Source of the DNA: Rhizobacter sp. SG703
GTDB taxonomy: Bacteria > Pseudomonadota > Gammaproteobacteria > Burkholderiales > Burkholderiaceae_C
Assembly: GCF_012275445.1 (NCBI RefSeq)
Contig: NZ_JAAZQK010000007.1
Coordinates: 248,001-312,000, forward strand
Length of the DNA: 64,000 nucleotides
Direction of reading: 5' to 3'
Part shown: one piece after another, positions 9,156 to 59,917 of the stretch
Numbering within the stretch: the first letter of the stretch is position 1
Layout: every line of letters starts with the position of its first letter
The notes under the pieces: generated by a model
Databases searched by the model: none
Seen by the model: only the letters and a program-made list of their open reading frames with translations
What the model was told of the DNA's origin: nothing
Made by a program: the position numbers and the translations under genes

Positions 9156-9164
9156 ACACCGTTT
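9154..9164. promoter_or_regulatory. Candidate LacI-family operator upstream of transporter genes
   Basis: AAACACCGTTT is an inverted repeat (AAAC/GTTT) overlapping the stop of the regulator gene, 118 bp before the sugar-binding protein gene. Its left part CTAAACACCG resembles CTAAACAACG at the upstream candidate site. A second promoter serving the ABC transporter genes could be regulated here. Confidence 0.35.
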
Positions 9165-9282
9165 GTTTCGCGAACTGCGCTGACTCTTGCGCGGGAATCC
9201 CCCGTCAGAACGTTCGGCGCTGCGGCCTATCCTGATCGGCGTGACCTCGACGTCACGCCCCTACAAAGCAGGAGACAAGCGA

Positions 9283-10533
9283 ATGACACGTCACCCACTG
9301 AAAACATTCGTCGCGGCCGCATGCGCGCTCGCGTTCTCGGGCCTGGCGGCCGCCCAGCAAAGCGTGGAGGTGCTGCACTGGTGGACCTCCGGCGGCGAGG
9401 CCGCGGCGCTGAACGTGCTGAAGGGCAACCTGGAGAAGCAGGGCGTCAAGTGGAACGACATGCCGGTGGCCGGCGGCGGCGGCGAGGCGGCGATGACCGC
9501 GGTGCGCGCCCGCGTGACCGCCGGCAACCCGCCGACCGCGGTGCAGCTGCTCGGCTTCGACATCCAGGACTGGGCGAAGCAAGGCGTGCTGGCCGACCTG
9601 AACGCGGTCGCCGCGAAGGAAGGTTGGGACAAGGTCGTGCCGGGCGCGCTGCAGGCGTTCTCGAAGTACGACGGCAAGTGGATCGCCGCGCCGGTCAACG
9701 TGCACTCCACCAACTGGGTCTGGGCCAACAAGTCGGTGCTGGACAAGGCCGGCGTCACCGCGATGCCGACCAGCTTCGACGAGTTCATCGCCGCCGCCGA
9801 GAAGGTGCAGAAGGCCGGCTTCGTCGCGCTCGCGCATGGCGGCCAGCCGTGGCAGGACGCGACGCTGTTCGACAGCGTGGTGCTGAGCACCGGCGGCATC
9901 GACTTCTACAAGAAGGTCTTCATCCAGAAGGACAAGGCCGCGCTCGGCTCGCCGACGATGCTGAAGGCCTTCGACCGCATGGGCCAGCTGCGCAAGCTGG
10001 TCGACAAGGACTTCTCCAACCGCGACTGGAACCTCGCGTCGGCGATGGTCATCAGCGGCAAGGCCGGCTTCCAGATGATGGGCGACTGGGCCAAGGGCGA
10101 GTTCGTCGCGGCGAAGAAGAAGCCGGGCGTCGATTTCATCTGCATGCGCTTCCCCGGCACGCAGGGCATGGTGTCGTTCAACTCCGACCAGTTCGCGATG
10201 TTCAAGGTCGGCGGCGACAAGGCGGCCGCGCAGGCCAAGATGGCCAGCGCGGTGATGGACCCGGCGTTCCAGTCGGCCTTCAACGTCGTCAAGGGCTCGG
10301 TGCCGGCACGCACCGACGTCTCCGACGCGGCGTTCGACGACTGCGGCAAGAAGGGCATCAAGGACCTGGCCGAAGCCAGCGGCAAGGGCGCGCTGGTCGG
10401 CTCGATGGCGCACGGCCATGCGGTGCCGGCCGGCATCAAGAACGCGTTCTACGACGTGATCACGCGTCACTTCAACGGCCAGATCGACAGCAAGGCCGCC
10501 GTCAAGGAGATGGTCGCCGCGGTCGACAACTGA
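9283..10533 (+). CDS. gtsA: Sugar ABC transporter substrate-binding protein (GtsA-like)
   Basis: 416 residues with a Sec signal peptide ([19 protein letters not shown]). The mature start [12 protein letters not shown] and the following [10 protein letters not shown] are characteristic of the CUT1 glucose/mannose-binding proteins such as GtsA of Pseudomonas. It captures sugar in the periplasm and delivers it to the two permeases encoded next. The ATG at 9283 follows AGGAGA at 9270-9275; the frame extends upstream but without similarity. First gene after the regulator, 127 bp away. The glucose/mannose assignment rests on recognised motifs, not on an alignment. Confidence 0.88.
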
Positions 10534-10554
10534 TCCACCGGGCACCGACCGCCG

Positions 10555-11424
10555 ATGAAGGCTCCCCTGATCGCGAAGGCGGTGCTGTCGCCGAGCGTGC
10601 TGCTGATCGGCGTCTGCGTCTACGGCTACATCGCGTTCACCGCGTGGCTGTCGTTCACCGCCTCGACGATGGTGCCGGTGACGACGCTGTCCGGCCCCGA
10701 GGCGTACGTGCGCCTCGTCGGGCTGAACAACTGGGTGCTGTCGGTGAAGAACCTCGGCATCTTCGCGACGCTGTACATCCTCGGCTGCGGCGTGCTCGGG
10801 CTGCTGCTGGCGGTGCTGATCGACCAGAAGGTGCGCGCGGAAGCCGGCTTCCGGTCGGTCTTCCTCTACCCGATGGCGCTGTCGTTCATCGTCACCGGCA
10901 CCGCCTGGAAGTGGCTGATGGACCCGGGCATCGGGCTGGAGCGCTCGATGCACGCGATCGGCTGGACCGGCTTCGCGTTCGGCTGGGTGAAGGACAGCGA
11001 CCTCGCGATCTACTGCATCGTGATCGCCGCGGTGTGGCAGACCTCGGGCTTCGTGATGGCGCTGTTCCTGGCCGGGCTGCGCGGCGTCGACACCGAGGTG
11101 GTCAACGCCGCCCGGCTCGACGGCGCGCGCGCCTGGCGCATCTACCAGCGCGTGATCCTGCCGCAGCTCGGCGCGAGCTTCATCTCGGCCTTCGTGATCC
11201 TCGCGCACATGGCGATCAAGTCCTACGACCTGGTGATCGCGCTGACCAATGGCGGACCGGGGCGCGCGAGCTGGCTGCCGTCGCTGTTCATGTACCAATA
11301 CACCTTCACCCGCAACGAGATGGCGGTCGGCGCGGCCAGTGCGGTGCTGATGCTGGTCGCGATCGCGATCGTCGTGGTGCCGTACATCCTGCGCGAGACG
11401 CGCGGCGAGGATGCGCATGGCTGA
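10555..11424 (+). CDS. gtsB: Sugar ABC transporter permease, MalF/GtsB type
   Basis: 289 residues with about six membrane segments. The conserved cytoplasmic loop of CUT1 permeases that contacts the ATPase is present as NAARLDGARAWRIYQRVILPQLG. It lies 21 bp after the binding-protein gene and overlaps the next permease gene by 14 bp. Together with the second permease it forms the inner-membrane channel for the imported sugar. Confidence 0.92.
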   Translation: MKAPLIAKAVLSPSVLLIGVCVYGYIAFTAWLSFTASTMVPVTTLSGPEAYVRLVGLNNWVLSVKNLGIFATLYILGCGVLGLLLAVLIDQKVRAEAGFRSVFLYPMALSFIVTGTAWKWLMDPGIGLERSMHAIGWTGFAFGWVKDSDLAIYCIVIAAVWQTSGFVMALFLAGLRGVDTEVVNAARLDGARAWRIYQRVILPQLGASFISAFVILAHMAIKSYDLVIALTNGGPGRASWLPSLFMYQYTFTRNEMAVGAASAVLMLVAIAIVVVPYILRETRGEDAHG

Positions 11425-12295
11425 GCGCAGGTTGAAGGCCGTCGTGTCACGGGTCCTGCCTCGCGTGCTGCTCTACGGCGTGCTCGGCTATGCGGCCCTG
11501 CTGTTCCTGATGCCGCTGTACGTGATGCTGGTCAACTCGGTGAAGCCGCTCGACGAGATCCGCGGCGGCGACCTGATGGCCTGGCCCGACGCGTTCACGC
11601 TGCAGCCGTGGCACGACGCCTGGAGCCTGGCGCAGATCGGCGTGCAGGCCACCGGGCTGAAGCCCTACTTCGTCAACAGCTTCCTGATGACGCTGCCGGC
11701 GGTGCTGATCTCGACCGGCATCGGCGCCTTCAACGGCTACGTGCTGACGCAGTTCCGGTTCCGCGGCGCACACCTGGTGTTCGCGATGCTGATGTTCTCG
11801 GTGTTCATCCCGTTCCAGATCGTGCTGATCCCGATGGCGCGCACGCTCGGCATCCTGCACCTGGCCGGCACGGTGCCCGGGCTGGTGCTGGTGCACGTGG
11901 TGTACGGCATCGGCTTCACCACCCTCTTCTTCCGCAACTACTACGCGGCCTTCCCGCCCGAGCTGGTGCGTTCGGCGCGCATGGACGGCGCGCGCTTCTT
12001 CCGCCTGTTCTTCCGGCTGCTGCTGCCCAACAGCGTGCCGATCATCGTGGTCTCGGTGATCTGGCAGTTCACCAACGTCTGGAACGACTTCCTGTTCGGC
12101 GCGTCGTTCAGCGACTACAGCAGCTTCCCGATCACCGTGGCGCTGAACAACCTGGTGAATTCGAGCACCGGCGTCAAGGAATACAACGTGCACTTCGCGG
12201 CGGCGTTCATCGCCGGCGCGCCGACGCTGCTGGTCTACATCCTGTCCGGCAAGTACTTCGTGCGCGGCCTGATGGCCGGCTCGGTCAAGGGCTGA
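11411..12295 (+). CDS. gtsC: Sugar ABC transporter permease, MalG/GtsC type
   Basis: 294 residues with six predicted membrane segments. The ATPase-contact loop is SARMDGARFFRLFFRLLLP, as in MalG-type permeases. The start ATG at 11411 overlaps the previous gene; an in-frame ATG at 11417 is equally possible. It pairs with the preceding permease and is energised by the ATPase encoded 24 bp downstream. Confidence 0.92.
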   Translation: MRMAERRLKAVVSRVLPRVLLYGVLGYAALLFLMPLYVMLVNSVKPLDEIRGGDLMAWPDAFTLQPWHDAWSLAQIGVQATGLKPYFVNSFLMTLPAVLISTGIGAFNGYVLTQFRFRGAHLVFAMLMFSVFIPFQIVLIPMARTLGILHLAGTVPGLVLVHVVYGIGFTTLFFRNYYAAFPPELVRSARMDGARFFRLFFRLLLPNSVPIIVVSVIWQFTNVWNDFLFGASFSDYSSFPITVALNNLVNSSTGVKEYNVHFAAAFIAGAPTLLVYILSGKYFVRGLMAGSVKG

Positions 12296-12319
12296 TTCCC
12301 GCAGTTTCCGACACACACC

Positions 12320-13372
<1,053 letters not shown>

Positions 13373-13389
13373 GCCAGGAGGTGAACGCG

Positions 13390-14640
13390 ATGGAAGCCTG
13401 GATGAACGACGTGCCCGCCGCCGTGCGGGATTCGCAGCGGCAACTGCGCCGCGACGTGCGCGACCTGCCCGGCCGCTTCGCGCGGTTGAGCGATGCGCTG
13501 GAGGCCGAGGTGGCCGCGATCCGCAGCGAGCAGGCGCACGGCGGCGCGGTGCCCGAACTGCCGTTCCAGGACGTGGCCGCCGGCCGCGTCACTGCGGCAC
13601 AGCGGGCCCACATCAAGCGGCGCGGCTGCGTGGTGGTGCGCGGCGTGTTCGACCCCGACCAGGTCGGTGCGTGGAACGAGGCCATCGTGCGCTACATCGA
13701 CGACGTGCAGTACCTGCAGCGCATGCCGCAGAAGGCGGGGCTGGACAAGTACTTCAGCGCGCTCGGTTCGAGCCGGCCGCAGATCTACAGCCTGTACTGG
13801 TCGCTGCCGCAGATGCAGGCGCGCCAGCATGCCGACATGGCGACGCTGCGCAGCTGGCTGAACCGGCTGTGGACCTTCGAGAAGAACGGCACGCGGTATT
13901 TCGACCCGGACCGGCAGTTCAACTACGCCGACCGGATCCGCCGCCGCGAGCCGGGCGATTCGACGCTCGGGCTGTCGCCGCACTCTGACGGCGGCTCGGT
14001 CGAGCGCTGGTGCGAGCCGAGCTTCCGCCACGTCTACCGCGAGGTGTTCGACGGCGACCCGCTGGCCTTCGACCCGTTCGATGCCGAAGGCCGCACCGCG
14101 ACGCGCGAGATCCCGTCGCCGGCCGTCTGCTCGGCCTTCCGCACCTTCCAGGGCTGGACCGCACTGACCCGCCAGGGCCCCGGCGACGGCACGCTGAAGC
14201 TGGTGCCGATCGCGAAGACGACGCCATGGATGCTGCTGCGCGCGCTGCAGCCCGACGTGCCCGACGGCGACCTGTGCGGCGCGCAGCCGGGGCGCGCGCT
14301 GGGCGCGTCGCCGCAATGGCATGCGCCGCTGCTGGCCGGGCTGGTGTCGATCCCGCAAGTGGAACCGGGCGACACGGTGTGGTGGCACTCCGACGTGATC
14401 CATGCGGTGGAAGACCAGCACACCGGCAGCGGCTACAGCAACGTGATCTACATCGGCGCGGCGCCGTGGTGCGCGAAGAACGCCGCGTTCGCGCAGCGCC
14501 AGGCGCCGGCCTTCCTCGAAGGGCGCAGCAGCCCGGATTTCGCGCCGGAAGACTACGAACTCGGCTTCGCGGGCCGCGCGCGAGAGGAGAATCTGAGCCC
14601 GCTCGGCCTCATGCAGATGGGGCTGACGGACTGGACTTGA
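13390..14640 (+). CDS. DUF1479 (YbiU-like) Fe(II)/2-oxoglutarate-type dioxygenase
   Basis: 416 residues. The protein matches the DUF1479/YbiU family, which is related to phytanoyl-CoA-type non-heme iron dioxygenases. A probable iron-binding H-x-D lies in SPHSDGGSVERW and a late histidine in WWHSDVIHAVEDQH. The start at 13390 follows AGGAG at 13376-13380 with a normal spacing. It sits inside a sugar-uptake operon, 17 bp after the ATPase gene and 37 bp before an AGE-family epimerase, which is unusual and suggests oxidation of a sugar or sugar derivative. The reaction is unknown. Confidence 0.85.
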   Translation: MEAWMNDVPAAVRDSQRQLRRDVRDLPGRFARLSDALEAEVAAIRSEQAHGGAVPELPFQDVAAGRVTAAQRAHIKRRGCVVVRGVFDPDQVGAWNEAIVRYIDDVQYLQRMPQKAGLDKYFSALGSSRPQIYSLYWSLPQMQARQHADMATLRSWLNRLWTFEKNGTRYFDPDRQFNYADRIRRREPGDSTLGLSPHSDGGSVERWCEPSFRHVYREVFDGDPLAFDPFDAEGRTATREIPSPAVCSAFRTFQGWTALTRQGPGDGTLKLVPIAKTTPWMLLRALQPDVPDGDLCGAQPGRALGASPQWHAPLLAGLVSIPQVEPGDTVWWHSDVIHAVEDQHTGSGYSNVIYIGAAPWCAKNAAFAQRQAPAFLEGRSSPDFAPEDYELGFAGRAREENLSPLGLMQMGLTDWT

Positions 14641-14677
14641 CCCGCTGGACCTGAACGACTTTCCCTGAACGATTCCC

Positions 14678-15904
14678 ATGACAACGACGCCGCCCGTGCC
14701 CGACTTCCGCCGCCCCGAGCCCCTGCTCGCCCACATCCGCCACACGCTGGCCTTCTACGACGGCCGCTGCCGCGACGACAGCGGCGGCTTCTTCCACTTC
14801 TTCAAGGACGACGGCACCGTCTACGACCGGCGCACGCGCCACCTGGTCAGCAGCACGCGCTTCGTGTTCACGCACGCGATGGCGTTCCGGCGCTTCGGCG
14901 ATGCGCGCTGGCAGGACGGCGCGCGGCATGGCCTGCGCTTCCTGCAGCAGGCGCACCGGCAGCCGAACGGCGGCTATGCGTGGCAGCTCGACTGGGACGG
15001 CACGAAGGCCACCGTGCAGGACGACACCAACCACTGCTACGGCCTGGCGTTCGTGGTGCTCGCGCATGCGCACGCGCTGATGGCCGGCGTGGAAGAGGCG
15101 CGCGCCGGGCTGGACGAGAGCGTCGCGCTGATGGAGCGGCGCTTCTGGGAACCGGCGCGCGGGCTGTATGCCGACGAGGCGGATGCCGCGTGGACCGTCG
15201 GCAGCTACCGCGGCCAGAACGCCAACATGCACAGCTGCGAGGCGATGATCGCCGCGTACGACGCGACGAAGGACCCGAAGTACCTGCAGCGCGCGCTGAC
15301 GCTGGCCGAATCGATCACGCAGCGCCAGGCGGCGCTGGCCGACACGCAGGACGGCCCGCTGGTGTGGGAGCACTACCGGGCCGACTGGTCGGTCGACTGG
15401 GACTACAACCGCGACGACAAGACGAACATCTTTCGGCCGTGGGGCTTCCAGACCGGGCACCTGACCGAGTGGACCAAGCTGCTGCTGCAGCTGGAGACCC
15501 ACCTGCCGGCCGACCAGCGCCCGGCCTGGCTGCTGCCGACCGCGCGCCGCTTCTTCGACACCGCGATGCGCCGCGGCTGGGATGCAACGCACGGCGGGCT
15601 GGTCTACGGCTTCGCGCCCGATGGCAGCGTGTGCGACGGCGACAAGTATTTCTGGGTGCAGGCCGAGAGCCTGGCCGCCGCCGCGCTGCTCGCGCTGCGC
15701 ACCGGCGACGACGCGTATTGGGGCTGGTACGACAAGCTGTGGGGCTACAGCTGGGCGCACATGATCGACCACCGGCACGGCGCGTGGTACCGCATCCTGA
15801 CGCCGGACAACCGCAAGATCTCGGACGAGAAGAGCCCGGCCGGGAAGGTGGACTACCACACGATGGGGGCTTGCTATGACGTGCTGAGGGGGATGGGGGC
15901 ATGA
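14678..15904 (+). CDS. AGE-family sugar epimerase/isomerase
   Basis: 408 residues with the alpha/alpha-barrel sequence pattern of the N-acylglucosamine 2-epimerase (AGE) superfamily, which includes mannose isomerase and cellobiose 2-epimerase. Conserved histidine regions are visible: DDTNHCYGLAF, NANMHSCEAM, QTGHLTEW and the aromatic KYFWVQAES. It interconverts a free sugar after uptake. Last gene of the sugar operon, after the DUF1479 gene. With a GtsA-like transporter, a mannose-to-fructose or glucose/mannose conversion is the simplest guess. Confidence 0.88.
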   Translation: MTTTPPVPDFRRPEPLLAHIRHTLAFYDGRCRDDSGGFFHFFKDDGTVYDRRTRHLVSSTRFVFTHAMAFRRFGDARWQDGARHGLRFLQQAHRQPNGGYAWQLDWDGTKATVQDDTNHCYGLAFVVLAHAHALMAGVEEARAGLDESVALMERRFWEPARGLYADEADAAWTVGSYRGQNANMHSCEAMIAAYDATKDPKYLQRALTLAESITQRQAALADTQDGPLVWEHYRADWSVDWDYNRDDKTNIFRPWGFQTGHLTEWTKLLLQLETHLPADQRPAWLLPTARRFFDTAMRRGWDATHGGLVYGFAPDGSVCDGDKYFWVQAESLAAAALLALRTGDDAYWGWYDKLWGYSWAHMIDHRHGAWYRILTPDNRKISDEKSPAGKVDYHTMGACYDVLRGMGA

Positions 15905-16493
15905 ACGCCTGAAGGGCGCGGGCGATGAGCTCCATGCCGTACCGGATCTCACCGAACGCTGCCCCTTTGTCGCGGCCGCGACGAGCCAGAACTGTGCGCC
16001 GCTACCGGCTATCTGCACATGACGCGCAGCGCGGTGGAACGGCAGATCTCGATATCACGTCTTCGTCTTGGCAGTGTGTGTAGCGCGGCACCCCATTTGG
16101 CCGACGAATTCCTTGAGCTGATCGTCTGCGACATCGGCGTAGCGCCCCGCAGAGACATCCACCCAGCCTCGGCGAGCCGCCTGCTTGAGGGCCTCGCGCT
16201 TGACGTCCTCGACTCGCTCATGCTCCTCGAACGACGTCGACTCTTCGTGACGCTGGAGGGCCCCTGCTCCGCCCCGCTTGCGCAACACCAACTTGCCGGC
16301 GTCGATGTCGGCCTGACGCAACCGCTCGTTCGCAAACGGATCAAGCAAGGTCTTGTTGGTGATGGCTCGCTCATGTGTGTTCGAAATCAAAGCTTTGGCA
16401 CGCGGCGAAGCATGTGCATTGATGTGCTAACAGTCAAGATGGCCGGCAACAGTCCATCGATATACTCGCCCGACAACCTACTTTCGCCCACCC
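15905..16493. other. Border region between sugar operon and defence locus
   Basis: This 589-bp stretch marks the change from very GC-rich to more mixed base composition. It holds one possible small minus-strand gene (listed separately) and, near 16461-16466, TATACT, a plausible -10 element 27 bp before the AAA ATPase gene, though no matching -35 is obvious. No integrase, transposase or repeat of the tRNA 3' end was found here. Confidence 0.45.
16055..16390 (-). CDS. Possible small hypothetical protein
   Basis: A reading frame of 111 residues. The only visible start is TTG at 16390, so the true N-terminus is uncertain. The sequence is charged and soluble, with the C-terminal phrase KQAARRGWVDVSAGRYADVADDQLKEF (shortened here: AARRGWVDVSAGRYADVADD), reminiscent of the C-terminal helix of small ParD-like antitoxins, but no toxin gene is adjacent and the similarity is weak. 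It diverges from the AAA ATPase/protease pair and has a composition similar to it, so it may belong to the same acquired segment. Confidence 0.35.
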   Translation of the reverse strand: MISNTHERAITNKTLLDPFANERLRQADIDAGKLVLRKRGGAGALQRHEESTSFEEHERVEDVKREALKQAARRGWVDVSAGRYADVADDQLKEFVGQMGCRATHTAKTKT

Positions 16494-17483
16494 ATGCCCC
16501 GAGCAGATCTCCTTGTAAACCTCGTGCGCGCTGGCACCCAGGGCGATCAACGAACGTTCCGCTCGACCGTAGAGGCCATGGCGGCCGAGGAACGCGCCAA
16601 GCGGCACGGCCAACTCGCCGACAGGTTGGAGGAGAACCTGCGTCATCAGCCGGCGCAAGGCGCCAAGACTCCCGAGGTGGTGCGTAGTTTCGACGGCGGC
16701 CACGGAGGTCTGCTCTACGAGATCGAACCGCGCCGAGGATTGGAGAGCATTTTTCTCGACGATTCGGTACTGGCCCCGGTGCGCGAACTGGTCGAAGAGC
16801 AGCAGCGTGTTGATCTTCTGCGGTCGTACGGCATCGAGCCGCGCCATCGCGTGCTGTTGGCTGGACCTCCCGGCAACGGCAAAACGACGCTTGCAGAGGG
16901 CATCGCGTTTGAGTTGATGGCTCCTCTCTTCGTGGTGCGCTACGAAGCCGTCGTTGGAAGTTTTCTTGGCGAGACGAGCGGTCGGTTGAAGCGGCTTTTT
17001 GATTTCGCTCGTACCCACCATTGCGTTCTTTTCTTCGACGAGTTCGACACGTTGGGCAAGGAGCGAGGGGATACCCATGAGACGGGCGAGATCAAGCGCG
17101 TCGTGAGTTCGCTGCTCCTTCAGATTGATTCGTTGCCAAGCCATGTGGTTGTGGTGACGGCCACCAACCACGCGGAGCTTCTTGACCGGGCCGTGTGGCG
17201 ACGGTTCCAGCTTCGGTTGGACCTGCCTGCGCCGACGTTCGCGCAGCGGGTTGCGTGGTTCGATCGCTTTGAAGGCGAGGTCGGAATGCCGCTCGGCATG
17301 TCTACCAAGACCCTTGCCGGGCGTTTCCCAGCCCAAAATTTTTCAGACCTTGAGCAGTTCTGCCTGGACGTGCGACGACGCTACGTGCTGGCGCTGCCGG
17401 GGGCAGATATCAAGCGCATCGTGGCCGATCGCTTGACGCAGTGGAAAGGTCGAGTAGGGCCAGAAACCGCAGCCAAGGACTAA
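16494..17483 (+). CDS. ietA: AAA ATPase of an IetAS-type defence pair
   Basis: 329 residues. Single AAA domain: Walker A GPPGNGKT at residues 124-131 (Lys130), Walker B VLFFDEFD, sensor 1 in VTATNHAELLDRAVWRRF with candidate arginine fingers. The N-terminal ~95 residues are helical and unrecognised. The next gene, 3 bp downstream, encodes a subtilisin-like protease; this ATPase-protease pair is the architecture of the IetAS anti-phage system. The ATPase presumably senses infection or remodels and delivers a substrate to the protease. Base composition is clearly less GC-rich than the flanks, suggesting horizontal transfer. Assignment rests on domain pairing and order, not on alignment to characterised members. 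Confidence 0.8.
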   Translation: MPRADLLVNLVRAGTQGDQRTFRSTVEAMAAEERAKRHGQLADRLEENLRHQPAQGAKTPEVVRSFDGGHGGLLYEIEPRRGLESIFLDDSVLAPVRELVEEQQRVDLLRSYGIEPRHRVLLAGPPGNGKTTLAEGIAFELMAPLFVVRYEAVVGSFLGETSGRLKRLFDFARTHHCVLFFDEFDTLGKERGDTHETGEIKRVVSSLLLQIDSLPSHVVVVTATNHAELLDRAVWRRFQLRLDLPAPTFAQRVAWFDRFEGEVGMPLGMSTKTLAGRFPAQNFSDLEQFCLDVRRRYVLALPGADIKRIVADRLTQWKGRVGPETAAKD

Positions 17484-17486
17484 GCA

Positions 17487-20039
17487 GTGGCTACGGGCAC
17501 CCCCGAGGCGCTTCCTCTGCTTATCTTCCCGGCACCGACCGCTGTTCAACGCGAGGACGGTCAGGGATTCCCGTCTTCGGTCCACTTGCCGAACCATGCT
17601 CGGCAAGGCATTCGCCTGGGTACGCAGTTTGCGCGTTTGAAACATGCATTCGATGCTCGTCGCCTTGAGCTTCGTGCCCACGCACAGAACGACGATCCAG
17701 ACTTGGTGCTCGTTCTTGAGACTGTTGGGGCGGTGAGCGACTTCATCACCGCGGCGCGGCGCGTCCCGGGATTGGAATGGCTTGCCGGCATGGACGACAA
17801 GGTCGAGCCGGACGAGGACTTCTACGACACGGATGACGGCGACAAGCGTTTGGGCGGAAAGGTATTTCTTGTCGGCAGCAACCGCGCCGCGTTGGATGAG
17901 GTTGTGCGTCTATGGGAAAGATTCAATGCCGACCCAAACGTGAAGCTGGGTAGCAAGCTCGAAGCGTGGAAGCAGGTTTTCAAGCATCTCAAGGACGCAA
18001 GGTTCTGGGGGCCGGCAGATCGACTAGAGCCGAGTTTGCGCGACTCGTGGCGATTCAGGATCGAGCATGGTGATGCAGTACTGAGGTTTGAGATTGAGGC
18101 TTGGCATTTCGAGTCACCGGCAAGAAATGCCGCCGCGACACGTGAGATTCGTGCGTTGGTCGCCCACCTTCGCGGAACCGTGCTGTCGGAAAGTCTTATC
18201 GACGAGATCGCGTATCACGCCTTTTTGGTAGCGGTTCCGGCTGCGGGTGTCGCCGAGTTCTTTGCCGGCGATATGCCACCACTACTGAAATCCGATCGCG
18301 TGATGTTCTTTCGTGCTCACGGGCAGGCTACGGTACCTCTTGAGCCAGGGAATGAACGTGCGCCTGCACAGCCGTTGGTGCAACGCACCGATGGCACGCC
18401 CATCGTTGCATTGCTTGACGGCCTGCCCTTGGCGAATCACCCGCTCCTGCAAGGCCGCGTCTTGATCGACGATCCAGACTCGTGGTCAGAAGACTACCCC
18501 GCCCCTGAGCGCTTTCATGGAACAGCGATGGCGTCGCTGATTGCGTTGGGCGATCTCGGCGCGCCAGGGGCTCCACTATCTCGCCCCATTTATGCGCGAC
18601 CCATCATGCGGCCAGCGGGAGAAGGCGGACAGCGTGAAGAGCGTACGCCCGACGACCGCTTGCTCATCGATCTGGTCCATGTAGCTGTGCGGCGAATGTT
18701 CGAGAGCGAGCCCGGGCGGCCAGCAGCGGCACCGGGCGTGAGGGTGATCAACTTGTCAGTAGGCGATCCGTATCGCTTCTTCACGGGGGAGCTGTCCCCA
18801 TGGGCACGGCTGATCGACTGGCTCCAGCATAAGTACAACGTGCTGTTCATCGTGAGCGCGGGCAATCAGATGGACGATTTGCTGCTCGATACCGCCTCAG
18901 GAACCTTACAGAAGATGACGCTGCCGCAGCGGTCGGAGTTGGCGACGAGAGCTATCTGCAGCGATGACATGCATCGACGCGTTCTGGCCCCTGCGGAATC
19001 CGTAAACGCGCTCACGGTGGGAGCAAGCCACGCGGACGCATCAACGCCGCCCGCTGTGGGCGGCCGGTTCCTGATATTTGCGGAGAGTGGTTTGGCTCCG
19101 TACTCAGGCATTGGTCCGGGGTTCCGGCGTGCAGTGAAACCTGACATCCTGCTGCCGGGTGGGCGTGTCCTGTATCGAGAGGCGGCAATTTCGCCTACTG
19201 GTCAGACGCGGGTGCACCCGATTCATTCGTTGCAGCCCCCTGGTCAGCTTGTCGCGGCACCTCCCACGCCGCAGGGTATAGCGGTTCACACTCGCGGAAC
19301 AAGCAATGCGTGCGCAATAGCTACGCGATGGTCAGCGCGTACGCATGCGATGCTGGAGATCTTGCGTGCAGGCAACCCCACACTGGAAGCTCGGTACGAC
19401 ACGGTGCTGATCAAGGCTCTGTTGGCGCACGGCGCGGGCCTTGGTGACATTCAAGCGCAAGTTCTTGCTGCGAGGCCCGATGTCGATGAATGGCAGGCGC
19501 AGCGCCGTCTTGTCAGCCGGTATGCAGGCTTGGGTGTCGCAGATGTCGAGCGAGCCCTGACTTGCTCAGCCCAGCGTGCCACCCTCCTCGGCGTAGGTAC
19601 GCTGCGTAACGAGAAGGCGCTGGAGTTTCGTGTGCCCATTCCACGCGCCCTTCATGCAACGGTCCTTGGTCGCCGAGTCACTGCGACGCTGGCATGGATG
19701 ACGCCCGTCAACCCACGCCATTCCAAGTACCGCGTTGCCCGACTGTGGGTTGATCTGCCAGACGGCGCATTGCGGGGTGAACGTGCTGAAGGCGAGTGGC
19801 GGCAGCTTCGCTTGGGAACGGTCCACCATGAGGTGTTCGATGGGGCTCGTGCGGTTCCTGTCGATGACGAAACGTACCTGAGCGTTCGCGTGAACTGCCT
19901 TGCCGATGCTGGCCGCATCGTTGACCCGGTGAAGTTTGCGCTGTGCGTATCTCTTGAAGTTGCCGAGGGTGTGGCAATTCCCATCTATGAACAAATGCGG
20001 GAACGTGTGGCACCGCGTGTGGACATCCGTGGTGGTTAG
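17487..20039 (+). CDS. ietS: Subtilisin-like (S8) serine protease of an IetAS-type defence pair
   Basis: 850 residues, GTG start 3 bp after the ATPase stop. The S8 catalytic triad is visible: Asp311 in IVALLDGLPLANHP, His344 in RFHGTAMAS, and Ser606 in RGTSNACA; the oxyanion Asn lies in IVSAGNQ. No signal peptide is present, so it acts in the cytoplasm, unlike most subtilases. About 300 residues precede the protease domain and ~240 beta-rich residues follow it; both flanking parts are unrecognised and may bind targets. As the partner of the upstream AAA ATPase it fits IetS, a cytoplasmic protease thought to be unleashed during phage infection. Confidence 0.8.
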   Translation: MATGTPEALPLLIFPAPTAVQREDGQGFPSSVHLPNHARQGIRLGTQFARLKHAFDARRLELRAHAQNDDPDLVLVLETVGAVSDFITAARRVPGLEWLAGMDDKVEPDEDFYDTDDGDKRLGGKVFLVGSNRAALDEVVRLWERFNADPNVKLGSKLEAWKQVFKHLKDARFWGPADRLEPSLRDSWRFRIEHGDAVLRFEIEAWHFESPARNAAATREIRALVAHLRGTVLSESLIDEIAYHAFLVAVPAAGVAEFFAGDMPPLLKSDRVMFFRAHGQATVPLEPGNERAPAQPLVQRTDGTPIVALLDGLPLANHPLLQGRVLIDDPDSWSEDYPAPERFHGTAMASLIALGDLGAPGAPLSRPIYARPIMRPAGEGGQREERTPDDRLLIDLVHVAVRRMFESEPGRPAAAPGVRVINLSVGDPYRFFTGELSPWARLIDWLQHKYNVLFIVSAGNQMDDLLLDTASGTLQKMTLPQRSELATRAICSDDMHRRVLAPAESVNALTVGASHADASTPPAVGGRFLIFAESGLAPYSGIGPGFRRAVKPDILLPGGRVLYREAAISPTGQTRVHPIHSLQPPGQLVAAPPTPQGIAVHTRGTSNACAIATRWSARTHAMLEILRAGNPTLEARYDTVLIKALLAHGAGLGDIQAQVLAARPDVDEWQAQRRLVSRYAGLGVADVERALTCSAQRATLLGVGTLRNEKALEFRVPIPRALHATVLGRRVTATLAWMTPVNPRHSKYRVARLWVDLPDGALRGERAEGEWRQLRLGTVHHEVFDGARAVPVDDETYLSVRVNCLADAGRIVDPVKFALCVSLEVAEGVAIPIYEQMRERVAPRVDIRGG

Positions 20040-20103
20040 CGCCGTACAACACATGGCGGGTCACGACATTGCTGCGGAGTAGCCAGCAGCCCTCGGAAAT
20101 GAA

Positions 20104-20131
20104 GAAGCCCGTTGGACATCCAACGGGCTTC
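20104..20131 (-). terminator. Hairpin downstream of tRNA-Ala
   Basis: A perfect 13-bp inverted repeat (GAAGCCCGTTGGA and its complement) with a 2-nt loop, 10 bp beyond the tRNA 3' end. On the minus strand it is followed by TTCATTTCC, a modest T-rich tail. It probably terminates the tRNA transcript, and may also stop reading-through from the protease gene on the other side. Confidence 0.7.
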
Positions 20132-20141
20132 AAGGGTTTGT

Positions 20142-20217
<76 letters not shown>

Positions 20218-20297
20218 AACAAGGGCGCCAGTCTATCAAAAAAAACGGCGGGCCGGCCCGCCCGGATCGGGGTGCCGGAGCGCTTAAGCTGCGCGCC

Positions 20298-20759
20298 ATG
20301 CCCGCCGCCGTCGAGATCCGCCTCGCCCTGCCCGAAGACGCGCACGCCATCGCCGCACTGTCGCGCGAGGCCATCGAGCACGGCCTGCCCTGGCGCTGGA
20401 CGCCGCAGCGCGTGCGCCGCAGCCTGCGCGACCGCAGCACCAACGTGATCGTCTGCCACGAACAGGGCGCGCTGCACGGCTTCGCGATCATGAAATACGA
20501 CGACGAGGAAGCCCACCTGCTGCTGCTCGCCGTCGCCGCGGCGCAGCGCCACCGCCACATCGGCTCGGGCCTGATGGCCTGGCTCGATGCCACCACCCGC
20601 GCCGCCGGGATCGCGGTGATCCGCGTCGAGGCGCGCGCCAGCAACACGCAGGCCCGCTCGTTCTACCGCCACCACGGCTTCCGCGAGACCGGCATCGTCT
20701 CCGGCTACTACGAAGACGTCGAGGACGCGGTGCGCATGCGGCGCGACCTGCGCGGCTGA
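20298..20759 (+). CDS. GNAT-family N-acetyltransferase (RimI-like)
   Basis: 153 residues. GNAT fold features are visible: [19 protein letters not shown] provides the acetyl-CoA-binding Q/R-x-x-G-x-G/A-like loop ([10 protein letters not shown]), followed by [20 protein letters not shown], the typical N-x-x-A-x-x-F-Y-x-x-x-G-F ending. It transfers acetyl from acetyl-CoA to an amine, possibly on a protein N-terminus or small molecule. The frame is open upstream through the tRNA; the ATG at 20298 is the first that fits the domain. Substrate unknown. Confidence 0.85.
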
Positions 20760-20834
20760 CCCATCTCCCCGCCGGATTCCACGGGAGCTCCGGCCGGACT
20801 ACAGTGTCGGCCGGCACCAATTCCCGGAGGCAGC

Positions 20835-21833
20835 ATGAAGAAGGTCGTGTGGGGTGTTCTCAGCACCGCGAAGATCGGCATCGAGAAGGTCATTCCCGGC
20901 ATGCAGAAGAGCGCCTTCTGCGAGGTGCGCGGCATCGCGTCGCGCTCGCTCGGGCCAGCCCGCGAGGCGGCCGACAAGCTCGGGCTGGCCAAGGCTTACG
21001 GTTCGTACGAAGAAATGCTCGCCGACCCCGAGATCGAGGCCGTCTACAACCCACTGCCCAACCATCTGCACATCCCGCTGACGCTGCAGGCCGCGCGGGC
21101 CGGCAAGCACGTGCTGTGCGAGAAGCCGGTGTCCATCACCGCGCAAGAAGCGGCCGAGCTGCGCACCGTCGCCGACAAGGTCCTCGTCAGCGAGGCCTTC
21201 ATGGTGCGCTACCACCCACAGTGGCTGCGCGTGCGCGAGCTGCTGCGCGCCGGCCGCATCGGCACCGTGCGCTCGGTGCAGGTCTTCTTCTCGTACTTCA
21301 ACGACGATCCGGCCAACATCCGCAACATGCCCGGCATCGGCGGCGGCGCGCTGTACGACATCGGCTGCTACGCGATCGTCGCCGGCCGCTTCCTGTTCGA
21401 GGCCGATCCGAAACGCGTGATCGCGCTGATCGACCGCGACCCGAACTTCCGCACCGACCGCAGCTGCAGCGCGCTCGCCGACTTCGGCGCCGGCCGCCAC
21501 CTCGACTTCACGGTGTCGACGCAAAGCGTGCCGTACCAGCGCGTGCAGGTGGTCGGCACCACCGGCCGCATCGAGATCCAGATCCCGTTCAATGCGCCGC
21601 TCGGCGGCCGCACGAAGATCTTCATCGACGCCGGCCGCGCGCTCGACGGCTCGGCCATCGAGACCGAGACGCTGCCCGAGGCCGACCAGTACACGCTGCA
21701 GGGCGATGCGTTCTCGCGCGCGGTGCGCGGCGAGATCGCGCTGCCCTACGGCGTCGACGATGCGATCACCAACATGCGGGTGATCGACGCGCTGTTCCGC
21801 TCCGAACGCAGCGAGCGCTGGGAAGCGGTCTGA
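20835..21833 (+). CDS. Gfo/Idh/MocA-family NAD(P)-dependent oxidoreductase
   Basis: 332 residues, preceded by GGAGG at 20826-20830. The N-terminal Rossmann fold starts with WGVLSTAKIG, and the catalytic EKP motif is in VLCEKPVSITAQEA; the C-terminal beta-sheet domain carries GGGALYDIGCYAI, typical for this family. These enzymes oxidise or reduce sugars, inositols or related polyols. The stop shares one base with the start of the potassium-channel gene. Substrate is not evident. Confidence 0.92.
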   Translation: MKKVVWGVLSTAKIGIEKVIPGMQKSAFCEVRGIASRSLGPAREAADKLGLAKAYGSYEEMLADPEIEAVYNPLPNHLHIPLTLQAARAGKHVLCEKPVSITAQEAAELRTVADKVLVSEAFMVRYHPQWLRVRELLRAGRIGTVRSVQVFFSYFNDDPANIRNMPGIGGGALYDIGCYAIVAGRFLFEADPKRVIALIDRDPNFRTDRSCSALADFGAGRHLDFTVSTQSVPYQRVQVVGTTGRIEIQIPFNAPLGGRTKIFIDAGRALDGSAIETETLPEADQYTLQGDAFSRAVRGEIALPYGVDDAITNMRVIDALFRSERSERWEAV

Positions 21834-22711
21834 TGCCGGTGCCGCCCGCCGCGCCGGCCGAGCCCGCCGACCGCTTCGGCCGCCCGCCCACCGGCTGGCG
21901 CTTGCGGCTGTTCACGGTGATCTTCGAAGCCGACACGCGCAGCGGCCGGCTGTTCGACCTGGTGCTGGTGTGGCTGATCCTCGCGAGCGTCGCCGTCGTG
22001 ATGCTCGACAGCTTCGCGTCGGTGCACGCGCGCTGGGGCGGCGTCTTCTCGGTGCTCGAATGGGTGTTCACCGTGCTGTTCAGCCTCGAGTACCTGGCGC
22101 GGCTCGCCTGCGTGCAGCGGCCCGGCCGCTACGCCGGCAGCGTGTTCGGCGTGATCGACCTGCTGGCGGTGCTGCCGACCTGGGCCGCGCTGGTGGTGCC
22201 GGGCCTGCATGCGCTGATCGACGTGCGGGCGCTGCGCCTGCTGCGGCTGTTCCGCATCCTGAAGCTGGCCGCCTACATCGCCGAATACCGCGCGCTCGGC
22301 GAGGCGCTGATGGCCAGCCGCCGCAAGATCCTGGTGTTCCTGAGCTTCGTGCTGCTGGTCACCATCGTGATGGGCAGCCTGATGTATGCGGTCGAGGGGC
22401 CGCGCAACGGCTTCGACAACATCCCGGTGTCGGTCTACTGGGCGATCTCGACGATGACCACCGTCGGCTTCGGCGACATCACGCCGAAGACCGGGCTCGG
22501 CCGCTTCATCGCGTCGTTCATGATGCTGGTCGGCTGGGGCACGCTCGCGGTGCCCACCGGCATCGTCAGTGCCGAATTCACCGCGCTGCGCTTTCGCGGC
22601 CAGCCGGCGCCCACCACCCGCACCTGCCCGGCCTGCCTGAGCGAGGGGCATGCCGCCAGCGCGCGCTATTGCAGCGATTGCGGTGCGCCGCTGCCCGGCA
22701 CCCGTGACTGA
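21833..22711 (+). CDS. Voltage-gated potassium channel with C-terminal zinc ribbon
   Basis: 292 residues. Six membrane segments can be traced: S1 VLVWLILASVAVVML, an S4 with regularly spaced basic residues (RALRLLRLFRILKLA), S5 KILVFLSFVLLVTIVMG, the selectivity filter TTVGFGD, and S6 SFMMLVGWGTLAVPTGI. The C-terminus carries a four-cysteine zinc ribbon (CPAC...CSDCG), an uncommon addition for a prokaryotic Kv channel and a possible metal or redox sensor. It overlaps the oxidoreductase gene by one base and ends 3 bp from the convergent lipase gene. Confidence 0.92.
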   Translation: MPVPPAAPAEPADRFGRPPTGWRLRLFTVIFEADTRSGRLFDLVLVWLILASVAVVMLDSFASVHARWGGVFSVLEWVFTVLFSLEYLARLACVQRPGRYAGSVFGVIDLLAVLPTWAALVVPGLHALIDVRALRLLRLFRILKLAAYIAEYRALGEALMASRRKILVFLSFVLLVTIVMGSLMYAVEGPRNGFDNIPVSVYWAISTMTTVGFGDITPKTGLGRFIASFMMLVGWGTLAVPTGIVSAEFTALRFRGQPAPTTRTCPACLSEGHAASARYCSDCGAPLPGTRD

Positions 22712-22714
22712 GGC

Positions 22715-23560
22715 TCAGAAAAACGCCCGCGCATAGTTGATCGGCGCATGGTCCGCCAGGTCGCGCAGCAGCACGGCGCCGGGCTTGCCGGCATGCTCGC
22801 CGAAGTAGGCGGTGCGGGCGCGCATTCGGTCGTCGTCGACCTGGACCGCATCGGGCCGCTCGACCAGTTCGCCGCCGCTCGTGATGTAGCTGGCCGGCGT
22901 CACGTGCGCATACGCGCTCAGGCTCGGCGGCAGGTCGGTGACCAGGTCGCAGCAGTTGACGAGCCGGATGCGCTGCGGATTGCGCAGCCCGGCGGCAAAG
23001 GCCGCGTCGCCGACCCGCGGCGAGCCGAGCGTCACCAGCCGGCCTTCGGGCCACACCGAGGCCGCGAGGGTCGCCAGCGCCGCGCCCAGGCTGTGGCCGG
23101 TCAGCAGCAGCCCGTTGCGCGGCTTTGCATCGCCATCCAGCCAATGGCCGATGCGCGGCAGCAGCGTGCGCGCCGCGCCGGCAAAGCCGACGTGCACCCG
23201 GCCGGCGGCTTCGGGCCACGGTGTCGTCAGCGCGTTCAGGTCGGTCGCCAGGTCGGCGAGTTCGTCGGGCTGCGTGCCGCGGAAGGCCACCAGCACCAGC
23301 CCGTCGGCCGGGCGCAGCGCACCGAAGGCCTGCGAGCCGCTGGCCGTGTCGACGAACAGCCGCGGCGCCTCGAAGCCGGCCCGCGCCAGCGCGGCGGCCA
23401 GCCGGTCGGCCTCGGCCTTCGAGCCCTCGGCCCGCACATAGGCCAGGCGCGACGCCTCGGTGGCCAGTTGCAGCAACGTCGGCGGCGCCTGGGGCGCGAA
23501 CAACGTGGGCGCCCGTTCGGGCGCGTACAAGGCGGTGCGGCTGGGGTCGTAGGGGATCAC
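22715..23560 (-). CDS. Lipase class 3 family protein
   Basis: 281 residues from a GTG at 23560, chosen because the domain begins soon after (YDPSRTALYAPER). The frame is open far upstream into non-coding sequence. Class 3 lipase features: the nucleophile elbow GHSLGAALATLAA, an upstream LVAFRGTQPDELADLATDL (oxyanion region), an aspartate in LVTLGSPRVGDAAFAAG with NCCDLVTDLPP, and a late histidine near the C-terminus. No clear signal peptide. It hydrolyses ester bonds, natural substrate unknown. It is convergent with the channel gene. Confidence 0.85.
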   Translation of the reverse strand: MIPYDPSRTALYAPERAPTLFAPQAPPTLLQLATEASRLAYVRAEGSKAEADRLAAALARAGFEAPRLFVDTASGSQAFGALRPADGLVLVAFRGTQPDELADLATDLNALTTPWPEAAGRVHVGFAGAARTLLPRIGHWLDGDAKPRNGLLLTGHSLGAALATLAASVWPEGRLVTLGSPRVGDAAFAAGLRNPQRIRLVNCCDLVTDLPPSLSAYAHVTPASYITSGGELVERPDAVQVDDDRMRARTAYFGEHAGKPGAVLLRDLADHAPINYARAFF

Positions 23561-23756
23561 GGGGCATGGCGGCAGCGGGGATCGCGCATTCTGCGGGCCG
23601 CGCAGGCAGGTGTGCGTTTCAGGCGTGCGGTCAGCGCCCAAAACCTGAGTTCTGTACGTTGGCAATCGCCGGGCAGGTGACAGGCCTGCCGTTTGCCGCT
23701 CAACTGCGCGGCTCAGTCCCCGCCCTGTTCCGATCCACCACCAGAGAGGTTCCCCG

Positions 23757-24665
23757 ATGGCCAACGACAAGCCCCGCCAGACCGCGAACGACTTCGACCC
23801 CGAGGTGCTGCGCCTGTTCGACAAGTACGTGCATGGCCAGATCGACCGCCGCGGCTTCCTCGACGGCGCCCGCAAGTACGCCGTCGGCGGCCTGACGGCC
23901 GTCGGCCTGCTCGAGGCGCTGAGCCCGAAATTCGCCGCCGCCGAACAGGTGCCGAAGACCGACCCGCGCATCTCGGCCGAATCGGTCGAGATCCCGTCGC
24001 CGCTCGGCTACGGCAAGGTGCGCGGCTACCTCGTCAAGCCGGCACGCGTCGCCGGCAAGCTGCCGCTGGTGCTGGTGGTGCACGAGAACCGCGGCCTGAA
24101 CCCGCACATCGAGGACATCGCCCGCCGCCTCGCGCTCGAGAACTTCATCGCGTTCGCGCCCGACGCGCTGTTCCCGCTCGGCGGCTACCCCGGCGACGAG
24201 GACAAGGCACGCGAGCTGTTCGCCAAGCTCGACCAAGCCAAGACGCTGGAGGACTTCGTCGCCGCCGCCAACTACCTGCGCGCGCACCCGCTGGGCAACG
24301 GCAAGCTCGGCGCGGTCGGCTTCTGCTACGGCGGCGGCGTCGTCAACACGCTGGCCACGCGCGTGCCCGAGCTGGCGGCCGGCGTGCCGTTCTACGGCAA
24401 CGCGCCGGCGCTCGACAAGGTGGCCGGCATCAAGGCACCGCTGCTGCTGTTCTTCGCCGACAACGACGAGCGCATCAACGCCGCCTGGCCGCCGTACGAG
24501 GCGGCGCTGAAGGCCGCGAAGGTGAAGTTCGACGCCTACAAGTACCCCGGCACGCAGCACGGCTTCAACAACGACACCACGCCGCGCTACGACGAGGCGG
24601 CCGCGAAGCAGGCCTGGACGCGCACGATCGCGTTCTTCAACACCCAGCTGCGCACTGCGGGATGA
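23757..24665 (+). CDS. Dienelactone hydrolase family protein, twin-arginine-like N-terminus
   Basis: 302 residues. Alpha/beta hydrolase of the dienelactone hydrolase family with the cysteine nucleophile in VGFCYGGG, an acid in LFFADNDERI and the histidine in GTQHGFNND. The N-terminal region has DRRGFLDGARKYAVGGLTAVGL, resembling a Tat signal, so it may be exported folded. Preceded by AGAGAGG. The ester or lactone substrate is unknown. Confidence 0.88.
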   Translation: MANDKPRQTANDFDPEVLRLFDKYVHGQIDRRGFLDGARKYAVGGLTAVGLLEALSPKFAAAEQVPKTDPRISAESVEIPSPLGYGKVRGYLVKPARVAGKLPLVLVVHENRGLNPHIEDIARRLALENFIAFAPDALFPLGGYPGDEDKARELFAKLDQAKTLEDFVAAANYLRAHPLGNGKLGAVGFCYGGGVVNTLATRVPELAAGVPFYGNAPALDKVAGIKAPLLLFFADNDERINAAWPPYEAALKAAKVKFDAYKYPGTQHGFNNDTTPRYDEAAAKQAWTRTIAFFNTQLRTAG

Positions 24666-24732
24666 TCCCCGGGGGACGCGCGCGGCGGCATCGCTACACT
24701 GCGCAGCTTCGCCAGCCTCGTGCCCCCCAATC

Positions 24733-25581
24733 GTGTCGGATCGCTTCTCTGTCCTGCCGCAGTACTTTCTTCCCAAGCAAGCGCTGACGCTGTTGGCCGG
24801 GCGCATCGCGTCGGCCAGCGCCGGCCCGTCGACGACGCGGCTGATCCGCTGGTTCGTCAAGCGCTACGGCGTGGACATGAGCGAGGCGGCGCGGCCCGAG
24901 ATCGAGAGCTACGCCACCTTCAACGAGTTCTTCACGCGGGCGCTGAAGCCGGGCGCGCGGCCGATCGCGAAGGCCGACCTGGTCTGCCCGGTGGACGGCG
25001 CGATCAGCCAGTTCGGCCGCATCGAGCACGACCAGATCTTCCAGGCCAAGGGACACCACTACACCACGACCGCGCTGGTCGGCGGCGACGCGGCGCTGGC
25101 CAAACGCTTCGACAACGGCCACTTCGCGACGCTGTACCTCAGCCCGCGCGACTACCACCGCATCCACATGCCGCGCGACGGCCACATCGTGCGCATGATC
25201 CACGTGCCCGGCGCGCTGTTCTCGGTCAACCCGACGACCGCGCGCGGGGTGCCGGGGCTGTTCGCGCGCAACGAGCGCGTCGTCTGCGTGTTCGAATCGG
25301 CCGCCGGCCCGTTCGTGCTGGTGCTGGTGGGCGCCACCATCGTCGGCAGCATGGCGACGGTCTGGCACGGCGTCGTGAACCCGACGCGCACCGGCCGGGT
25401 TCGCGACTGGCGCTACGAGATCGAGCCGCAGGAGCTGAAGCAAGGCGCCGAAATGGGCCGCTTCCTGCTCGGCTCCACCGTGGTGATGCTGTTTCCCGCC
25501 GGGCCGCTGGCCTTCAATCCGGCGTGGGCGCCGGGCGGCGCGATCCGCCTCGGCGAGGCGATGGCGGACACCGGCGGCTGA
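24733..25581 (+). CDS. psd: Phosphatidylserine decarboxylase proenzyme
   Basis: 282 residues, GTG start. The self-cleavage motif LGST is present in RFLLGSTVVMLFP near the C-terminus: cleavage between Gly and Ser creates the pyruvoyl group of the alpha chain. Upstream catalytic regions VCPVDGAIS and DYHRIHMP fit bacterial Psd. The enzyme makes phosphatidylethanolamine at the inner membrane. It lies 67 bp after the dienelactone hydrolase gene and is convergent with the amino-acid transporter operon. Confidence 0.96.
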   Translation: MSDRFSVLPQYFLPKQALTLLAGRIASASAGPSTTRLIRWFVKRYGVDMSEAARPEIESYATFNEFFTRALKPGARPIAKADLVCPVDGAISQFGRIEHDQIFQAKGHHYTTTALVGGDAALAKRFDNGHFATLYLSPRDYHRIHMPRDGHIVRMIHVPGALFSVNPTTARGVPGLFARNERVVCVFESAAGPFVLVLVGATIVGSMATVWHGVVNPTRTGRVRDWRYEIEPQELKQGAEMGRFLLGSTVVMLFPAGPLAFNPAWAPGGAIRLGEAMADTGG

Positions 25582-25598
25582 CGGGCCACGTCACGCGA

Positions 25599-26378
25599 TC
25601 ACTTCAGGCTGCCGGCCAGGAAGCGCCGCAGCCGCTCGCTGCGCGGGCGCACCAGCACCTCGCGCGGGTCGCCCTCTTCCTCGACCACGCCTTGGTGCAG
25701 GAACATCACGTGGCGCGACACCTCGGCCGCGAACGCCATCTCATGGGTGACGACGATCATCGTGCGCCCCTCGGCCGCCAGTCCGCGCATCACCTTCAGC
25801 ACCTCGCCGACCAGCTCGGGGTCGAGCGCCGAGGTCGGCTCGTCGAACAGCATCACCTGCGGCTCCATCGCGAGCGCCCGCGCGATCGCGACGCGCTGCT
25901 GCTCGCCGCCCGACAGCTGCGACGGGTAGAGGCCCTGGCGGTGCAGCACGCCGACGCGCGCGAGCAGCGCCTCGGCGCGCTCCACCGCCTGCGCCCTCGG
26001 CACGCCGAGCACATGGACCGGCGCCTCGATCACGTTCTCGAGCGCGGTCATGTGCGCCCACAGGTTGAAGTGCTGGAACACCATCGCGAGCCGGCTGCGC
26101 AGGCGCTGCAGCTGCTTCGCATCGACGGCCCGCAATCGGCCGTCGCGCCCCGGCTTCAGCGCGATCGTCTCGCCGGACAGCGTGATGCGGCCGGCATCGG
26201 GCGGCTCGAGCAGGTTGATGCAGCGCAGCAGCGTGCTCTTGCCCGAGCCCGACGAGCCGACGATGCTGATCACGTCGCCCTGGCCCGCGGCCAGCGAGAC
26301 GCCCTTCAGCACCTCGGTGTCGCCGAACTTCTTGTGCAGGTCCTCGACCCGGAGCTGCTCCGCCCGAACGGCCGTCAT
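25599..26378 (-). CDS. Polar/basic amino acid ABC transporter ATPase (AotP/HisP-like)
   Basis: 259 residues. Walker [10 protein letters not shown], signature LSGGEQQR, Walker [14 protein letters not shown], and H-loop VVTHEM match the HisP/AotP class; the insert [18 protein letters not shown] is typical of basic amino-acid transporter ATPases. Last gene of a five-gene minus-strand operon; its ATG overlaps the stop of the AotO-like gene by one base. It supplies energy to the two permeases encoded upstream. Confidence 0.93.
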
Positions 26379-59909: not shown

Positions 59910-59917
59910 GGCGGCTC

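What the first reader, a model, noticed from the sequence alone, without database searches (positions are those of the whole stretch)
16494..20039. IetAS-type AAA ATPase plus cytoplasmic subtilase defence pair beside a tRNA gene
Two coupled genes (3-bp gap) encode an AAA ATPase with intact Walker motifs and an 850-residue subtilisin-like protease with intact Asp311/His344/Ser606 but no signal peptide. This matches the IetAS anti-phage architecture. The DNA is visibly less GC-rich than its flanks and lies on the 3' side of tRNA-Ala. The long N- and C-terminal extensions of the protease (about 300 and 240 residues) are unrecognised and may hold the sensing or target-binding function.
Basis: partly seen in the sequence, partly recalled or inferred. 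Interest (0 to 1): 0.8.

Follow-up and report, generated by a model that had tools for sequence, protein, structure and literature searches.

The report
IetAS protease toxin-antitoxin defence pair
Two neighbouring bacterial genes encode an ATP-driven controller and a protein-cutting enzyme of a known kind that works as a toxin-antitoxin pair and is listed among anti-virus defences; this copy looks horizontally acquired, but the kind is already catalogued.

Summary
16494-17483 encodes a 329-aa AAA+ ATPase and 17487-20039 an 850-aa subtilase. Both match PADLOC IetA and IetS models full length (E 3e-147, 4e-302) but fall far below NCBIfam's equivalog cut-offs for the narrower IteA/IteS group (216/510 and 87/900 bits). 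They belong to a long-IetS subfamily that PADLOC already models. Homologues (SGI1 SgiAT, Mycoplasma A132/T133) are experimentally shown toxin-antitoxin pairs with the protease as toxin (passages).

The pair is accessory: two same-genus genomes have the site without it. It is a cassette of about 3.66 kb (16440-20096). No integrase was recognised and no tRNA-end duplication found, so tRNA-directed integration is not shown. The 'unrecognised' extensions appear in the predicted model as two ferredoxin-like units resembling subtilase prodomains and a C-terminal beta domain; best PDB match is pro-Tk-subtilisin. Most likely mechanism: ATP-dependent restraint of IetS by IetA, released on infection or cassette loss. 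Anti-phage action of this copy is untested. An intact, ordinary member of a known kind.

The parts
16494..17483 (+). ietA: AAA+ ATPase, 329 aa; classic AAA domain (residues about 80-320) behind three short helices (3-50) and a low-confidence linker (53-71)
   Evidence: PADLOC IetA PDLC04232 E 3.1e-147, residues 1-325; Pfam AAA E 4.1e-29; model pLDDT 80, pTM 0.68; motifs in 19 sequences
17487..20039 (+). ietS: subtilisin-like protease, 850 aa, Asp311/His344/Ser606; N-terminal units 73-173 and 198-277, low-confidence linker 281-298, catalytic 305-627, helices 635-691, beta-rich domain 697-825
   Evidence: PADLOC IetS PDLC04233 E 4.2e-302, residues 9-847; Pfam Peptidase_S8 305-624 E 4.5e-18; model pLDDT 84, pTM 0.88
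16440..20096 (.). imported cassette, about 3.66 kb: homology to the same-genus G008 chromosome stops at 16439, homology to another IetAS locus (L002) starts at 16444, the same-genus G002 chromosome resumes at 20097 (blastn edges)
   Evidence: blastn of window 8001-28000 against L034, L035, L002
16461..16466 (+). TATACT, -10-like box 27 nt before the ietA start, present in 7 of 7 aligned upstream regions (read by eye); the consensus scan found no sigma-70 site here
   Evidence: alignment A5; scan with 0 promoter-like sites
20142..20217 (-). tRNA-Ala (CGC), conserved neighbour; cassette lies on its 3' side; terminator-like hairpin at 20104-20131
   Evidence: ARAGORN; terminator scan

Best explanation
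This is a horizontally acquired IetAS-family operon of the long-IetS subfamily. SHOWN HERE: two-gene architecture, intact catalytic motifs in both proteins, full-length family match, accessory presence, purifying selection. REPORTED FOR HOMOLOGUES: the subtilase is toxic and the co-encoded AAA+ ATPase neutralises it. INFERRED: IetS is made in the cytoplasm with its own prodomain-like N-terminal units. An IetA ring, sensing ATP state and gripping IetS through its pore or N-terminal helices, keeps IetS inactive. When phage infection or loss of the cassette disturbs IetA (ATP, IetA level, or a phage component), IetS is released, cleaves cytoplasmic proteins and stops the cell, so that the phage fails or cells without the cassette die. 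Estimated likelihoods: IetAS family member in the broad sense 0.97; restraint of IetS by IetA 0.75; anti-phage benefit in this host 0.5; the trigger is unknown.
For: Full-length PADLOC matches. Profile-profile homology to seven other-clade IetS over residues 127-850 (E 8e-42) and to two other-clade IetA over the AAA domain (E 7e-49). IetA directly upstream of IetS in 24 of 32 other loci; the other 8 hold under 400 nt upstream and cannot be judged; loci are related to each other. IetA and IetS distances correlate, r 0.90 over 153 pairs of 18 loci, which are not independent. Two same-genus sites without the pair. Relatives on plasmids (100 of 72,556 records), beside the portal gene of a viral contig (L062), and in three loci with an integrase within the fetched flank (L008, L063, L064). 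Toxin and antitoxin roles of homologues in SGI1 and Mycoplasma (passages). In one Pseudomonas survey IetAS on a Pf phage went with resistance, a correlation only, as the test lysogen was not obtained (PMC11878078, passages). IetA is p97/FtsH/PAN/Vps4-like with a conserved pore-loop region around 155-161.
Against: Scores are far below NCBIfam's equivalog cut-offs, so function is transferred across a deep split. Which profile the tested homologues (SgiT, T133, pTiC58 IetS) match was not determined, and no experiment on this subfamily turned up in five searches that did not name it. The prodomain reading rests on predicted topology and whole-chain Foldseek matches (TM-score by query length 0.38; aligned ranges not given); Pfam finds no I9 domain in the fragments or in 19 members. 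No complex was modelled.
Confidence: 0.75

Rival explanations
1. Addiction module only: the pair stabilises the mobile DNA that brought it (post-segregational killing), and phage protection, if any, is a by-product.
For: SGI1 sgiAT and, as cited there, pTiC58 ietAS act in maintenance of mobile elements (passages; the pTiC58 paper itself is not held). Relatives on 100 of 72,556 plasmid records.
Against: Here the cassette sits on the chromosome without a recognised mobile element to stabilise, yet both genes are intact with low dN/dS against L002. NCBIfam calls its IteA/IteS models 'anti-phage', though this copy is below their cut-offs.
Confidence: 0.3
2. ATP-dependent degradation machine: IetA unfolds selected (phage) proteins and feeds them to IetS, like FtsH or PAN with their proteases, rather than restraining IetS.
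For: IetA resembles p97, FtsH, PAN and Vps4 motors; pore-loop residues are conserved.
Against: In homologues the protease is toxic without the ATPase and the ATPase neutralises it (passages), which an obligate unfoldase-protease pair does not predict. Whether IetS forms a chamber cannot be seen from a monomer model.
Confidence: 0.15
3. Housekeeping protease and chaperone of the genus, unrelated to conflict.
For: None found beyond the intact reading frames.
Against: Only 4 of 99 other relatives match, 2 of 10 in the genus, one of them (G004) matching another IetS profile and one (G009) split between two frames at a different locus; sites without the pair in G002 and G008.
Confidence: 0.02

Closest known systems
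IetAS, PADLOC subfamily of models PDLC04232 / PDLC04231 (IetA) and PDLC04233 / PDLC04234 (IetS)
   Same: Gene order, lengths, full-length profile match, catalytic residues
   Different: Nothing found that sets this copy apart; nearest relatives found (L002, L062) are about 82% (IetS) and 92% (IetA) identical
NCBIfam IteA NF042959 / IteS NF042956 (equivalog models named anti-phage)
   Same: Same two protein families; IetS matches at 415-765, IetA at 74-300
   Different: Scores 87/900 and 216/510 bits, far under the cut-offs; IetS is about 100 residues longer than the 747-position model
SgiAT of Salmonella genomic island 1
   Same: AAA-ATPase antitoxin and subtilisin-like toxin encoded side by side (PMC5006074, passages; PMC10954446, passages)
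   Different: Sits on an integrative mobilizable island; no direct sequence comparison made here
Mycoplasma mycoides subsp. capri A132/T133
   Same: AAA-ATPase of 353 aa and S8 protease toxin of 757 aa as a pair (PMC8562856, passages)
   Different: Distant host; shorter protease; no sequence comparison made here
pTiC58 ietA/ietS (Yamamoto 2009)
   Same: Cited as an AAA-ATPase/serine protease toxin-antitoxin pair for plasmid stability (seen only in citing passages)
   Different: Paper not held; plasmid not fetched; no comparison made

Membership tests
IetAS (broad, PADLOC) | IetA and IetS profiles matched over their whole length | tested here: met
   E 3.1e-147 (1-325) and 4.2e-302 (9-847); PADLOC's own score thresholds are not shown by the tool
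IetAS (broad, PADLOC) | AAA gene directly followed by the S8 protease gene | tested here: met
   3-nt gap; same order in 24 of 32 other loci, 8 not judgeable
IetAS (broad, PADLOC) | Intact Walker A/B and Asp-His-Ser triad | tested here: met
   Alignments A3 and A4; that these define the family is recalled
IetAS (broad, PADLOC) | Phage protection in a host | not testable with these tools
   Needs a plating assay
NCBIfam IteA/IteS equivalogs | Score above the curated cut-off | tested here: not met
   216 of 510 and 87 of 900 bits; so not filed in this narrower group
AAA-ATPase/subtilase toxin-antitoxin systems (SgiAT type) | Protease toxic alone, ATPase neutralises | not testable with these tools
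   Reported for homologues only (passages)
tRNA-integrated genomic island | Duplicated tRNA 3' end flanking the insert | tested here: not met
   21-nt tRNA 3'-end sequence occurs once in the window with up to 3 mismatches. A 14-of-16-nt repeat, 16346-16361 and 20131-20146, is one of ten weak two-copy repeats in the tract
tRNA-integrated genomic island | Integrase gene in the insert | tested here: not met
   Four ORFs of 16019-20039 scanned against Pfam, none an integrase; shorter and antisense ORFs were not scanned
Subtilase with I9-type prodomain | Pfam Inhibitor_I9 match | tested here: not met
   No match in the fragments or in 19 members; predicted topology only suggests a prodomain

The most novel reading that the evidence does not exclude
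IetS is a cytoplasmic zymogen with two tandem prodomain-like units, and IetA is not a passive antitoxin but an ATP-driven gatekeeper that docks on or threads these units; infection tips the ring to pull them off the active site. This would be a bacterial AAA+-gated protease switch; the second unit lies in the part of IetS (residue 127 on) that aligns with the seven other-clade IetS compared.
Probability: 0.25. Interest if true: 0.6.

Novelty: new member of a known kind. Interest (0 to 1): 0.27.

Why it matters
IetAS is listed in many defence surveys, but two papers say its mechanism is unknown (PMC9958689, PMC11878078; passages). This locus adds an intact member of the long-IetS branch with same-genus sites that lack it, and a domain model that turns 'unknown extensions' into testable prodomain-like and beta-domain roles. 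It also ties the defence label to the older toxin-antitoxin literature.

Tried and rejected
tRNA-directed integration: looked for a second tRNA end and for repeats; nothing beyond a weak 14-of-16 match. Housekeeping role: rejected by presence/absence. I9 prodomain by sequence: no Pfam support. Sequence search of solved structures: no match for the IetS profile at 0.01, three non-significant ones for the single protein. Phages: only two records of one Enterobacter phage, 25% identity over 39% of the query. Viral fold library: weak matches, the best to giant-virus subtilases. Consensus promoter scan: none found. The 111-aa ORF at 16058-16390 minus: no Pfam or NCBIfam family, weak PADLOC match E 0.004; it has a homologue at the G008 site that lacks ietAS, so I do not count it as part of the cassette. 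Literature: five searches listed no paper on an IetAS structure or mechanism that I recognised from titles and abstract starts; only the held open-licence library was searched.

Full report
OBSERVATION. IetA is 329 aa, IetS 850 aa, 3 nt apart. The pair is 61.0% G+C against 70.1% for the rest of the window; the tRNA-Ala lies next to it on the other strand.

FAMILY. PADLOC places the ATPase in IetA and the protease in IetS over their whole length. NCBIfam sees the same families but at scores far under its equivalog cut-offs. So this is IetAS in the broad sense, in a long-IetS subfamily, and not in the narrow NCBIfam group. Profile-profile comparison joins this subfamily (19 sequences) to seven IetS of other clades across residues 127-850, E 8e-42, and its IetA to two other-clade IetA over the AAA domain, E 7e-49 (these two lie at the ends of their loci, so their N-termini could not be compared). 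Which of these clades the experimentally tested homologues fall in was not determined.

WHAT HOMOLOGUES DO. The SGI1 paper reports S025 (subtilase) as toxin and S026 (AAA-ATPase) as antitoxin, named sgiT and sgiA, and says that every SgiT homologue it found lay next to an SgiA homologue (PMC5006074, passages). The Mycoplasma paper reports the same roles for T133 and A132 (PMC8562856, passages). Both cite the pTiC58 ietA/ietS work of Yamamoto 2009, which is not held. Surveys list ietAS as anti-phage with mechanism unknown (PMC9958689 and PMC11878078, passages); a review table lists ietAS among systems in a row on functional phage proteins (PMC10286901, passage). The first demonstration of phage defence (Gao and colleagues, 2020) is recalled and was not seen in a call.

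LOCUS. Of 100 genomes searched (own included), 5 match IetS at E 0.001 or better: the own genome, G004, G009, G053 and G054; so 4 of 99 others and 2 of 10 in the genus. G004's protein best matches another IetS profile. G009 has ietA intact and ietS in two frames, at a different locus. In G002 (flanks 94-96% identical) and G008 (about 93%) the pair is absent: 377 bp in G002 and 930 bp in G008 lie between the two aligned flanks. In six other same-genus genomes fetched around this tRNA (G001, G003, G004, G006, G009, G010), only the tRNA and up to about 50 bp beside it align, and no ietAS lies in the 11.7-14 kb taken; G005 and G007 were not fetched. The window's homology to G008 stops at 16439 and its homology to the IetAS locus L002 begins at 16444; the G002 chromosome resumes at 20097. 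The cassette is thus about 16440-20096 and includes an upstream box TATACT, seen in 7 of 7 upstream regions. How it got in is not visible: no integrase was recognised in the four ORFs scanned, and no tRNA-end repeat was found.

WIDER CONTEXT. IetS relatives of any clade occur in 19 of 399 genomes drawn from the order, own included, in 100 of 72,556 plasmid records, in 2 of 50,697 phage records weakly and at three places in viral contigs. One of these, L062, is about 82% identical over its 648 residues (cut at the end of the held DNA) and lies next to a portal gene, with terminase, scaffold and major head genes beyond. That this is a P2-like arrangement, and that P2 carries accessory genes beside its portal gene, is recalled. 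L008 has a tRNA-Phe and an integrase upstream, L064 integrases and a tRNA-Ser, L063 an integrase downstream, L004 an IS21 pair downstream. Of the ten neighbours scanned, the other five were an OLD-like nuclease next to ietS in L064, a helicase (L003), an rve-domain protein (L007), and two without a family (L002, L036).

STRUCTURE. AlphaFold2 with 19 sequences gives IetS pTM 0.88, mean pLDDT 84. Secondary structure shows two beta-alpha-beta-beta-alpha-beta units at 73-173 and 198-277, a low-confidence linker at 281-298, the catalytic domain, a helical stretch and a beta-rich domain at 697-825. The top PDB matches are pro-Tk-subtilisin 3afg (E 8e-17, TM-score 0.59 by target and 0.38 by query length), SubHal 5fax and PCSK9, with Kex2 and kumamolisin further down. 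That 3afg is a pro-form is in its title; that it and SubHal carry a C-terminal jelly-roll is recalled. Foldseek gives no aligned ranges, so I cannot say which extension is covered. The prodomain reading is therefore an inference from topology and position. IetA gives pLDDT 80, pTM 0.68, three short helices at 3-50, a low-confidence linker and a classic AAA domain close to p97, FtsH, PAN and Vps4.

MECHANISM. I take IetS as a toxin restrained by IetA, because that is what homologues are reported to do and because the genes are coupled wherever it can be judged (24 of 32 other loci, 8 not judgeable). How restraint works, what releases it and what IetS cuts are inferred or unknown. The main rival is an addiction module without a defence role.

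VERDICT. A real, intact, horizontally acquired IetAS operon; a new member of a known kind. The most useful additions are the cassette edges, the link to toxin-antitoxin work, and the domain model of IetS.

Noticed in passing
window 59250-61624, minus strand: Second low-G+C patch (59-62% at 59001-61000) with a HEPN gene (Pfam RiboL-PSP-HEPN E 2e-21) next to a DUF262/GmrSD_N gene (Pfam E 2e-26; PADLOC NsnA E 4e-59): a likely second conflict-system pair.
   Followed up: partly
window 16058-16390, minus strand; L035 10317-10640: Small orphan ORF (about 106-111 aa) shared by the window and G008 at this site, with a shorter, differently continued relative in G002; antitoxin-like by eye only, no Pfam or NCBIfam family for the window copy.
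   Followed up: partly
L062 5349-9946: IetAS directly downstream of a phage portal gene in a viral contig; with L002 the closest IetS relative found.
   Followed up: yes
L064 7992-12446: IetS directly followed by an OLD-like AAA/TOPRIM nuclease gene, with integrases and a tRNA-Ser further off.
   Followed up: no
L036 8000-10566 (G009): ietS split between two frames while ietA is intact, at a locus other than the tRNA-Ala; real decay or assembly error not decided.
   Followed up: no
window 17481-17487 and relatives: IetA and IetS share one reading frame in 12 of 18 loci compared, with gaps of 3, 9, 21 or 27 nt; probably shared descent.
   Followed up: no
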